The notes under the pieces: model-generated
Seen by the model: only the letters and a program-made list of their open reading frames with translations
Databases searched by the model: none
What the model was told of the DNA's origin: nothing
Assembly (NCBI RefSeq): GCF_001423965.1
Contig: NZ_LMPV01000001.1
Coordinates: 571,908 to 635,907, forward strand
Direction: 5' to 3'
From: Exiguobacterium sp. Leaf196
GTDB lineage: Bacteria > Bacillota > Bacilli > Exiguobacteriales > Exiguobacteriaceae
DNA: 64,000 nt
Position numbers and translations under genes: made by a program
In this document: positions 14,345 through 63,866 of the stretch, piece after piece
Layout: the number at the start of each line of letters is the position of its first letter
Numbering within the stretch: position 1 is the first letter of the stretch

Positions 14345-14404
14345 GACTAGCGAAGCAAAGCGACTCATGCTAGACTAATGGGGCAAGCCAATTAAACACG
14401 AAAA

Positions 14405-14493
14405 GACACTAGGGGAGTCTCGCAGCAGACTGAGACGGAAGTATCCGGACCCTTTGAACCTGATCTAGTTCGTACTAGCGGAGGGAAGTGGCT
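14405..14493 (+). ncRNA. TPP riboswitch (THI element)
   Basis: The conserved core is clear: CTAGGGGAGTC, CTGAGA, ACCCTTTGAACCTGATCTAG and GCGGAGGGAAGTGG in order, with GACACT pairing to AGTGG at the base. It precedes the thiamine thiazole operon and an intrinsic terminator, so it acts by transcription attenuation when thiamine pyrophosphate is bound. Confidence 0.96.
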
Positions 14494-14531
14494 CGAAACC
14501 TTAGATATCCTTAGCGCTTCAGCGCATTTTC

Positions 14532-25070: not shown

Positions 25071-25316
25071 CGGAGCTGACTCAAAAGTCAGTCTCTACAA
25101 AGATAGGGGTGGCAGAATGATGATCTGCCACCCCTATCTCGTAATAAAAAAAATGACTCGTCACACGCAACTCCTACAGGAAAAAGCGCATTTATGCGCT
25201 GTCAGAGACAATCAAGACCCGCTTTCCTGCTTGAATGAAGCAGGAAAACTGGCTTGTGTCTCGCCTGAGGAAAGGGCGTGAAAAGACGCGTCATTCTTTT
25301 TGTTGAGTCAGCCTCG
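25071..25316. repeat. Palindromic dispersed repeat A, copy 1
   Basis: A 246-bp element bounded by inverted ends (CGGAGCTGACTC and GAGTCAGCCTCG). Inner segments are also complementary: AATGACTCGTCACACGC with GCGTGAAAAGACGCGTCATT, and TTTCCTGCTT with AAGCAGGAAA around a central loop. A second copy lies at 54433-54625 with most positions identical. Copy 1 contains an extra ~53-bp hairpin. It sits downstream of the Bax inhibitor-like gene. No open reading frame is evident and no target-site duplication was seen. Confidence 0.8.
25101..25139. repeat. Perfect 16-bp hairpin nested in repeat A copy 1
   Basis: AGATAGGGGTGGCAGA pairs perfectly with TCTGCCACCCCTATCT across a 7-nt loop. It is absent from copy 2. 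It is followed by CGTAATAAAAAA rather than a T-tract, so it is not a canonical plus-strand terminator. Confidence 0.75.
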
Positions 25317-46379: not shown

Positions 46380-46526
46380 ATGAATGGAGACGACGAACGT
46401 TATTGTCATTCTTGCTTTCCACAGGCGGGAGGTAAGCCGCGGTATCCTAAACTACGTTTCGTCTACCGGGTCTCACCTGACCCTGACGAAAGCGAAAAAC
46501 GTGCTTTCTTTTCCTGTAGGAGTTGA
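46380..46526 (+). CDS. 48-residue Cys-containing small protein (possible zinc ribbon)
   Basis: A short frame starting at ATG 46380 with AGGAG 7-8 bases upstream and ending at TGA 46524-46526. The product begins MNGDDERYCHSCFPQAGGKP and ends RAFFSCRS. The Cys9-x2-Cys12 pair and a late Cys46 suggest half of a metal-binding ribbon. It is hydrophilic and charged, with no membrane segment. It follows the 466-residue membrane protein and precedes a terminator, so it closes that unit. No family is recognised and the coding status rests on the binding site, start, Cys pair and terminator. The same DNA can also fold, see the flanking inverted repeat. Confidence 0.5.
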   Translation: MNGDDERYCHSCFPQAGGKPRYPKLRFVYRVSPDPDESEKRAFFSCRS

Positions 46527-46544
46527 GAATGAACAATTACGTTC
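46395..46544. repeat. Inverted repeat bracketing the small Cys protein gene
   Basis: GAACGTTATTGTCATTC (46395-46411) is complementary to GAATGAACAATTACGTTC (46527-46544) with one mismatch and one bulge. The left arm is inside the small gene and the right arm starts straight after its stop. The mRNA could close into a large stem. Confidence 0.55.
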
Positions 46545-54295: not shown

Positions 54296-54403
54296 CGTTT
54301 AGCTCGAATCGTTTTCCTGGGACAAGCATCGCGCCGGTACACTTCGTTGCAGGGTCGCTCCTGCTTGTATTTCCCTAGGAAGCGATTCCGAGCTTACAAA
54401 ACG
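54296..54403. repeat. Palindromic dispersed repeat B, copy 1
   Basis: A 108-bp imperfect palindrome. Left arm AGCTCGAATCGTTTTCCT faces right arm AGGAAGCGATTCCGAGCT, inner ACAAGC faces GCTTGT, and the centre holds CACTTCGTTGCAGGGTCGC. Copy 2 is at 63766-63866 with long identical stretches. It directly follows the alpha/beta hydrolase gene and precedes repeat A copy 2 by 29 bases. No coding potential seen. Confidence 0.8.
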
Positions 54404-54432: not shown

Positions 54433-54625
54433 CGGAGCTGACTCTAAAGCCAGTATCTACAAAGAATGACGCGTCACACGCCACTCCTACAGGAAAAAGC
54501 GCATTATGCGCTGTCAGAGACAAACAAGATCCGCTTTCCTGCTTGAAGGAAGCAGGAAAACTGGCTTGTGTCTCGCCTGAGGAAAGGGCGTGAGAAGATG
54601 CGTCATTTTTTTGGAGTCAGCCCCG
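54433..54625. repeat. Palindromic dispersed repeat A, copy 2
   Basis: A 193-bp element with the same inverted ends as copy 1 (CGGAGCTGACTC and GAGTCAGCCCCG) and the same inner pairs, including TTTCCTGCTT with AAGCAGGAAA and GCGCATTATGCGC. It lacks the extra 16-bp-stem hairpin that copy 1 contains near its left end. No open reading frame or target-site duplication was found. Confidence 0.8.
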
Positions 54626-63765: not shown

Positions 63766-63866
63766 GTTCATCTCGAATCGTTTTCCTGGGACAAGCATCG
63801 CGCCGCTTCACTTCGTTGCAGGGTCGCTCCTGCTTGTTTTTCCTTAGGAAGCGATTTCGAGTGAAC
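63766..63866. repeat. Palindromic dispersed repeat B, copy 2
   Basis: A 101-bp imperfect palindrome: GTTCATCTCGAATCG and TTTTCCT on the left face AGGAAGCGA and TTTCGAGTGAAC on the right, with the same centre CACTTCGTTGCAGGGTCGC as copy 1 at 54296-54403. The outermost bases differ between copies but remain complementary within each copy, which suggests that folding is under selection or that each end was built as a unit. Confidence 0.8.

What the first reader, a model, noticed from the sequence alone, without database searches (positions are those of the whole stretch)
25071..25316. Repeat family A: a ~190-bp self-complementary element present twice
Copies at 25071-25316 and 54433-54625 share inverted ends (GCTGACTC / GAGTCAGC) and nested inner pairs, so each can fold into one long branched hairpin. 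There is no transposase or reading frame inside, and neither copy lies in a gene. They could be MITE-like elements, REP-type repeats, or transcribed structured RNAs or 3' stabilisers. I cannot match them to a named family.
Basis: seen in the sequence. Interest (0 to 1): 0.6.

Follow-up and report, generated by a model that had tools for sequence, protein, structure and literature searches.

The report
Mobile element that replaces hairpins
The two repeats are copies of a small mobile DNA element of Exiguobacterium that moves by taking the place of an existing hairpin, often that of a gene terminator, and it carries a conserved folded core that also sits inside related transposons and is scattered through many other Bacilli.

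Summary
The two copies (exact ends 25072-25315 and 54434-54624) belong to a dispersed family found in 19 of 19 Exiguobacterium genomes, with 9-47 BLAST hits each.

They are non-autonomous, MITE-like mobile elements. At four sites an orthologous genome has a plain hairpin where the element sits (two clear terminators, one weak, one without a T-tract). The hairpin is gone, its stem base or A/T tracts remain, and there is no target duplication. This matches the inverted-repeat-replacing transposition published for IS1272 (PMC5678879).

Genome G006 has a full 2,052-bp IS1182-family insertion sequence whose ends match its own MITE copy at 15 of 16 bases each. The same core lies between one end and the transposase gene. 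The window elements are best read as transposase-less derivatives of such an IS.

The ~120-nt core is less ordinary: strong covariation, no Rfam match, present in some IS1182-family elements of Kurthia and Staphylococcus and in 104 of 398 Bacilli genomes.

Whether it acts as RNA or DNA hairpin is unsettled; template switching in palindromes could mimic covariation.

The parts
25072..25315 (+). Element copy 1, full-length form (244 bp): GGAGCTGACTC ... GAGTCAGCCTC
   Evidence: Ends set by comparison with the hairpin at the same site in G011, G016, G002, G003 and G010; coordinates checked
25072..25082 (+). left terminal inverted repeat of copy 1
   Evidence: matches the reverse complement of 25305-25315 at 9 of 11 bases (GGAGCTGACTC / GAGGCTGACTC); similar ends in 52 deduplicated copies of the genus
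25102..25138 (.). internal hairpin next to the left repeat; corresponds in position to the hairpin between core and transposase gene in the IS of G006; absent from copy 2
   Evidence: sequence; same order repeat-hairpin-core in L059 and, with the gene between repeat and hairpin, in L354
25161..25281 (+). structured core of copy 1
   Evidence: R1 136.3 bits, E 2.1e-36 (R1 was built from relatives, not from this copy)
25305..25315 (+). right terminal inverted repeat of copy 1, followed by GTTTTTTG that empty sites share
54434..54624 (+). Element copy 2 (191 bp), lacks the internal hairpin
   Evidence: hairpin at the same site in G017; TCTGAC and GTCTAC flanks kept
54474..54593 (+). structured core of copy 2
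   Evidence: R1 136.2 bits, E 2.3e-36 (this copy was in the training set)
46408..46532 (-). related core with different outer arms (my family B)
   Evidence: R1 E 2.3e-20, R2 E 1.1e-20 (this copy was in both training sets); sequence
54305..54391 (-). distant core of the kind carried by Exiguobacterium 'type c' IS1182-family elements, about 40 bp upstream of copy 2
   Evidence: R2 E 2.9e-6, R1 E 0.0011
63774..63860 (-). second distant core
   Evidence: R2 E 1.9e-6; not listed by R1 at E up to 1

Best explanation
The elements are miniature, transposase-less derivatives of an IS1182-family insertion sequence. SHOWN by sequence: a complete IS1182-family element of the same genus has nearly the same terminal repeats and, on one side of its transposase gene, an internal hairpin and the structured core in the order found in the miniature copies. 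At four sites an orthologous genome has a plain hairpin where the element sits, and that hairpin is gone while its stem base or A/T tracts remain. INFERRED: an IS1182-type DDE transposase acting in trans recognises the element's ends and a stem-loop target and exchanges one hairpin for the other, as proposed for IS1272. Where the target is a terminator, its T-tract stays next to the new stem, so the host gene keeps a terminator-shaped 3' end and insertion is cheap; that would account for the location at gene 3' ends. INFERRED, less sure: the conserved core is an IS-borne functional structure, most likely a folded nucleic acid that takes part in transposition or its control. In each of the 10 core-bearing IS loci where the transposase could be placed, it lies upstream of the transposase gene, in the orientation antisense to it.
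For: 19 of 19 genus genomes carry it. Four replacement sites: window copy 1 against G011/G016/G002/G003/G010, copy 2 against G017; G003 L065 against E. indicum L030, G009 L344 against E. undae L031. G006 IS: 2,052 bp with both ends in three contigs; each end matches the end of that genome's MITE copy L059 at 15 of 16 bases; core E 6.9e-21 inside it. Its transposase matches NCBIfam IS1182 at 390.6 bits, cut-off 270. Position: of 103 deduplicated copies 64 lie between convergent genes, 37 tandem, 2 divergent; other gaps in the same loci 14, 105 and 40; 101 of 103 adjoin a gene 3' end. TTT within 9 nt of the right end in 42 of 52 deduplicated copies, AAA on the left in 38 of 52; flank complementarity 0.75 against 0.44 at position 4, permutation 29 of 2000. 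Core covariation: 29 of 40 pairs with double changes, 0 of 500 shuffles as high; across families 83 double-change cells against 26.8 in shuffles.
Against: No IS with these ends was found in the window's own genome: the end-pattern search gave 11 matches (control 3), and tblastn with the G006 transposase found nothing in the 3-kb loci around the 11. The two PF13751 hits of G000 belong to IS types with other ends. So the transposase that moved these copies is not identified, although copy 1 is absent from a same-species genome whose upstream flank is 99% identical. The flank-pairing excess is modest (permutation about 0.015); at most of the 15 flank positions observed and control pairing are about equal. 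One of the four replaced hairpins (site 2) has no T-tract. At site 2 the same-species genome G011 lacks the element and the hairpin seen in G017, so deletions also occur. Most IS1182-family loci examined lack the core: 13 of 55 have it. Only 70 of 157 distinct core contexts have recognisable ends of this type, so the core also exists in elements whose way of moving I did not establish.
Confidence: 0.86

Rival explanations
1. The core acts only as DNA: a cruciform or single-strand hairpin near the IS end, bound by the transposase or mimicking its stem-loop target; there is no functional RNA.
For: IS1272, of the same family, targets stem-loops (PMC5678879, section 22). The core lies next to one IS end in G006. 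Paired arms became perfect palindromes in L028, L044 and L064 and L087, as expected from template switching in DNA hairpins (established knowledge, not tested here), which can create paired changes without RNA selection.
Against: In the 39 pairs not usually wobble, G-U cells outnumber A-C cells 109 to 52 on the plus strand, an asymmetry a DNA hairpin does not predict. Internal and junction positions are about as conserved as stems while end loops are free.
Confidence: 0.4
2. The core is a transposon-encoded non-coding RNA that regulates or guides the transposase, or silences its gene, from the strand opposite the transposase gene.
For: Upstream and antisense in 10 of 10 core-bearing loci where the transposase could be placed (two of them the same place, two the same IS), 80-230 bp away in nine and 827 bp in L203, where only the C-terminal part aligned. 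G-U asymmetry and A-rich unpaired positions (44% A) favour the plus strand as RNA.
Against: No promoter-like match on the core strand in G006 and none at copy 1 on either strand, by a crude scan. Most IS1182-family loci examined lack the core. No expression data.
Confidence: 0.25
3. The copies have been taken over by the host as 3'-end modules: terminators or mRNA stabilisers for neighbouring genes.
For: 101 of 103 deduplicated copies adjoin a gene 3' end and 42 of 52 have TTT next to the right end. In B. cereus, bcr1-bcr3 are often part of UTRs and bcr3, the only one of the repeats shown to do so, correlates with mRNA decay (PMC3446304, passages read).
Against: Replacement of terminator hairpins gives the position without selection. 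Presence varies between close genomes, even within the species. The same site can carry the element in either orientation (L045 against L061).
Confidence: 0.2
4. REP-type repeats moved by a Y1 (RAYT) transposase.
For: Palindromic, dispersed and extragenic.
Against: No Y1_Tnp match in G000, while the same search rang in 5 of 14 control genomes. About 190-245 bp long, and a related IS with a DDE transposase exists.
Confidence: 0.01

Closest known systems
IS1182 family / IS1272 (stem-loop-replacing insertion sequences)
   Same: The related IS of G006 has an IS1182 transposase by NCBIfam; insertion replaces a target hairpin and leaves no target duplication (PMC5678879, abstract, passages and section 22 read).
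   Different: The window elements have no transposase, are 191-244 bp and consist largely of a conserved structured core; the parts of PMC5678879 that I read do not mention such a core.
Prokaryotic MITEs
   Same: Terminal repeats, under 500 bp, no ORF, intergenic, IS-derived (review PMC10969869, passages read).
   Different: No target duplication; the target is a hairpin. The core is conserved and covarying across families; the passages of that review that I read describe nothing like it.
bcr1-bcr18 repeats of the Bacillus cereus group
   Same: Dispersed intergenic repeats; bcr1-3 called MITE-like, bcr10 and bcr18 said to have conserved secondary structure (PMC3446304, PMC6542083, passages read).
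   Different: Those passages tie bcr mobility to TTTAT motifs and restrict the first bcr element to the B. cereus group. Here no copy of 52 has TTTAT within 20 nt on both sides. I did not compare sequences with bcr elements.
Bhal-1 stem-loop family of Bacillus halodurans
   Same: Stem-loop repeat family, size 74, 36 copies, in a member of the Bacilli (PMC2267715, table passages read).
   Different: Its sequence was not in the text I saw, so kinship with the core is untested.
IS110 bridge RNA and IS605 omega RNA
   Same: A structured RNA encoded by a transposon (recalled; PMC11208160 seen only in search listings with the start of its abstract).
   Different: IS1182 encodes a DDE transposase; no guide-target pairing was looked for or shown here.

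Membership tests
MITE | terminal inverted repeats, no coding capacity, under 500 bp | tested here: met
MITE | many dispersed copies with empty-site alleles | tested here: met
MITE | an autonomous parent IS with the same ends | tested here: met
   G006 IS against its MITE copy L059, 15 of 16 bases at each end; in the window's own genome no such IS was found
MITE | target site duplication | tested here: not met
   four sites show hairpin replacement instead. IS1272 also has none (PMC5678879), so this does not exclude an IS1182-derived MITE
MITE | mobilised in trans by the parent transposase | not testable with these tools
   needs a transposition assay
IS1182 family (G006 element) | IS1182-type transposase | tested here: met
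   NF033551 390.6 bits against cut-off 270; PF13751, PF01609, PF05598
IS1182/IS1272 stem-loop-replacing insertion | target inverted repeat replaced, no target duplication | tested here: met
   window copies 1 and 2, L065/L030, L344/L031
REP / RAYT elements | Y1 transposase in the genome | tested here: not met
   no PF01797 match in G000
Rfam families | match to any of 4227 models | tested here: not met
   window at gathering scores; copy 2 with flanks at E up to 10; L014 with two cores at E up to 10, no match on a core
bcr repeats | TTTAT motifs at the ends | tested here: not met
   TTTAT within 20 nt on both sides in 0 of 52 deduplicated copies; TTTAT or ATAAA on at least one side in 12 of 52; bcr sequences themselves were not compared
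structured RNA class | covariation beyond shuffles | tested here: met
   relatedness and DNA template switching can inflate it, and 'further pair types' was reached by 63 of 500 shuffles
structured RNA class | transcription of the element | not testable with these tools
   no expression data

The most novel reading that the evidence does not exclude
The core is an unrecognised transposon-encoded RNA, spread over at least 32 of the 145 Bacilli genera sampled, that works together with IS1182-type DDE transposases (for example helping them capture stem-loop targets). That would be a DDE-transposase counterpart of the RNAs known from IS110 and IS605, and the many stand-alone copies would be its miniature passengers.
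Probability: 0.13. Interest if true: 0.92.

Novelty: new variant of a known kind. Interest (0 to 1): 0.62.

Why it matters
It links dispersed 3'-end repeats of Bacilli to a transposon family that swaps hairpins, which would explain why they sit at gene ends and why they are tolerated: a terminator is replaced, not destroyed. If the core proves to be a functional RNA or DNA partner of the transposase, it opens a question not raised in the parts of the papers I read: why some DDE transposons keep a conserved folded core beside their transposase gene. The models R1 and R2 make the core searchable and testable.

Tried and rejected
REP/RAYT origin: PF01797 search of G000 gave nothing. A reverse transcriptase link: PF00078 gave three matches in G000, which I did not follow. 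Rfam at relaxed thresholds: nothing on the element or on the cores of L014. Plasmid collection with copy 2 and flanks as DNA: no match.

Full-text search for four sequence words recalled from Bacillus repeats: seven papers, none on this subject by title and abstract start. Literature searches listed, by title and abstract start, no description of the Exiguobacterium element or of a conserved core in IS1182-family elements. This covers only the listed rows of the open-licence library under those terms.

R1 on 30 IS1182-family loci of the class found none at E up to 10 and, on 13 plasmid loci, only the two Kurthia ones. The broader R2 was then needed to see the core in ISSau3, G288 and S. equorum. 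R2 had L354 and L235 in its training set, so for those two the independent evidence is R1. The ends of the G002 IS1182-type element could not be settled. The two pattern hits outside Exiguobacterium (L033, L039) gave no real core and were set aside. Searches used regular expressions; one search gave false and cut-short matches, and one search replaced it.

Dropped rows: A1 uses 22 of the 31 non-redundant cores. One search kept 70 of 157 core contexts with both ends, 52 after removing orthologues. One search counts 103 deduplicated contexts plus 1 without a neighbour in the locus; one core lay inside an ORF of 200 aa or more by my crude caller. One search listed 83 candidate empty-site rows, many redundant; I read four new pairs. 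Two show replacement, one shows a collapsed scar (L179), one (L327 against L166) was a false pairing.

Full report
WHAT IS THERE. The window comes from an Exiguobacterium: of 24 pattern-matching stretches in named genomes, 22 are Exiguobacterium. The two copies are real and fold far better than shuffled sequence (z -10.9 and -10.6). Aligned with empty sites, their ends are 25072-25315 and 54434-54624. Copy 1 is the full form: left repeat, a 37-bp hairpin, a core of about 120 nt, right repeat. Copy 2 lacks the hairpin; its orthologue in G002 has a shortened one. Copy 1 lies between a Bax-inhibitor-like gene and a methyltransferase-like gene. Copy 2 lies between an alpha/beta-hydrolase gene and a CobW-like gene.

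HOW WIDESPREAD. BLAST with copy 2 gives 17 hits in the own genome and hits in 19 of 19 genus genomes, 9 to 47 each. A covariance model of the core, R1, built from 22 sequences, gives 21 places in the own genome at E up to 0.1 and matches in 18 of 200 Bacilli genomes (17 candidates scored per genome). The divergent matches share one motif set: GACTCCTNCNGGAAA, GAGACC...GGCTC, GCCNGNGGAAAGCG. In the Exiguobacterium forms A and B an extra hairpin follows the first motif; in the shorter forms of other genera it is missing. A model of this wider set, R2 (24 sequences), matches 104 of 398 Bacilli genomes and 32 of 145 genera; only 8 candidates per genome were scored there, and E-values of both models are rough.

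HOW IT MOVES. Orthologous sites were compared. At site 1, G011 (same species), G016, G002, G003 and G010 have a plain hairpin followed by a T-tract, AACAGACGACGG..CCGTCGTCTGTTTTTT in G011; the window has AAC-element-GTTTTTT. G001 and G017 have a different hairpin there, G007 the terminator stem followed by another hairpin; the more distant genomes differ. At site 2, G017 has TCTGAC-ACTTC..GAAGT-GTCTAC, a hairpin without a T-tract; the window has TCTGAC-element-GTCTAC. Two more sites appeared in a flank comparison: L065 against E. indicum (ACAAG and CTTGT kept, weak T stretch) and L344 against E. undae (a clear terminator, A- and T-tracts kept). No target duplication is seen at any of the four. 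This is what Wan et al. 2017 describe for IS1272 (PMC5678879; abstract, passages and section 22 read): the target inverted repeat is replaced. Other traces: at one site the element has opposite orientation in G011 and G016, and in G000 one site keeps only a mini-hairpin where G011 has a full element.

THE RELATED IS. IS1182-family transposases (PF13751) occur in 11 of 19 genomes. In G006, three contigs hold a 2,052-bp IS with both ends, in each case reaching the contig's edge. Read in the corresponding orientation, its ends agree with those of that genome's MITE copy L059 at 15 of 16 bases each. Inside the IS, next to one end, R1 finds the core at 79.7 bits, E 6.9e-21, then a hairpin, then the transposase gene. 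The MITE is this layout without the gene. The protein scores 390.6 bits with the IS1182 model, cut-off 270. In the window's own genome no IS with these ends was found.

THE CORE IN OTHER IS ELEMENTS. R2 matched 13 of 55 searched IS1182-family loci (some loci are the same place or copies of one IS): G006; type-c elements of G018 (fetched twice), G004, G000 and G012; loci of G008 and G015; two Kurthia plasmids whose transposase has the same protein accession; ISSau3; G288; and S. equorum. In the 10 loci where tblastn could place the transposase, the core is upstream of it and antisense, 10 of 10; the G012, G008 and G015 loci could not be placed that way. The 538/535-aa type, which made up most PF13751 hits in G016 and G005, has no core by R1 or R2.

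STRUCTURE. On 22 sequences, 20 of 40 pairs show changes on both sides, 0 of 500 shuffles as high. On 101 distinct copies aligned to R1, 29 of 40 pairs, covariation score 0.184 against 0.099 shuffled and 0.030-0.054 for slid partners. Across families (24 sequences), 83 double-change cells against 26.8 shuffled, although the number of further pair types was reached by 63 of 500 shuffles. The 101-copy alignment is fitted to the model's structure and leans towards it. Junction and internal-loop columns are about as conserved as stems, and end loops are not. In the 39 pairs not usually wobble, G-U cells outnumber A-C cells 109 to 52, which favours the plus strand as RNA. Against this, several copies have one arm rewritten to a perfect palindrome (L028, L044, L064; L087). 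Such template switching acts on DNA and can itself produce paired changes. Relatedness of copies also inflates these counts. So a conserved structure is well supported; its being RNA is only favoured.

GENE CONTEXT. In 103 deduplicated copies, 64 lie between convergent genes, 37 in tandem, 2 between divergent genes. Other gaps in the same loci give 14, 105 and 40 (crude ORF calling). 101 of 103 adjoin a gene 3' end. After the right repeat, TTT occurs within 9 nt in 42 of 52 deduplicated copies. Replacement of terminator hairpins would explain this without any further function.

LIMITS. The transposase that moved the window copies was not identified. How the core-bearing elements with other ends move (family B, the sister-genus and Bacillus types) was not shown. 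No expression data were available. Absence from print rests in one open-licence library, judged from listings.

Noticed in passing
window 14401-14503 (+): TPP riboswitch (RF00059, 71.7 bits), the only Rfam match in the window at gathering scores.
   Followed up: no
window 54305-54391 (-) and 63774-63860 (-): Distant core copies; the first, of the kind carried by type-c IS1182-family elements, lies about 40 bp upstream of element copy 2.
   Followed up: partly
L014 (two cores); also L332, L333, L337, L345, L350: Pairs of cores in opposite orientation about 40 to 120 bases apart. Their meaning is unknown.
   Followed up: no
L045 (G011) against L061 (G016): The same site carries the element in opposite orientation in two genomes.
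   Followed up: partly
L179 (G000 C11, around 76927) against L158 (G011): Where G011 has a full element, G000 keeps only GGCTGACTCACATGTCAGCC between A- and T-tracts: a collapsed scar that looks like an ordinary terminator.
   Followed up: partly
G016, G005, G004, G000 (L190-L228): A second IS1182-family type (535-538 aa, ends GAGGCTGGGACATAAC) has no core by R1 or R2; G016 has 22 PF13751 hits in all.
   Followed up: partly
L248, L249 (two Bacilli genomes, family f4): IS1182-family elements with a similar stretch of roughly 200 bp between one end and the transposase gene that neither R1 nor R2 matches.
   Followed up: no
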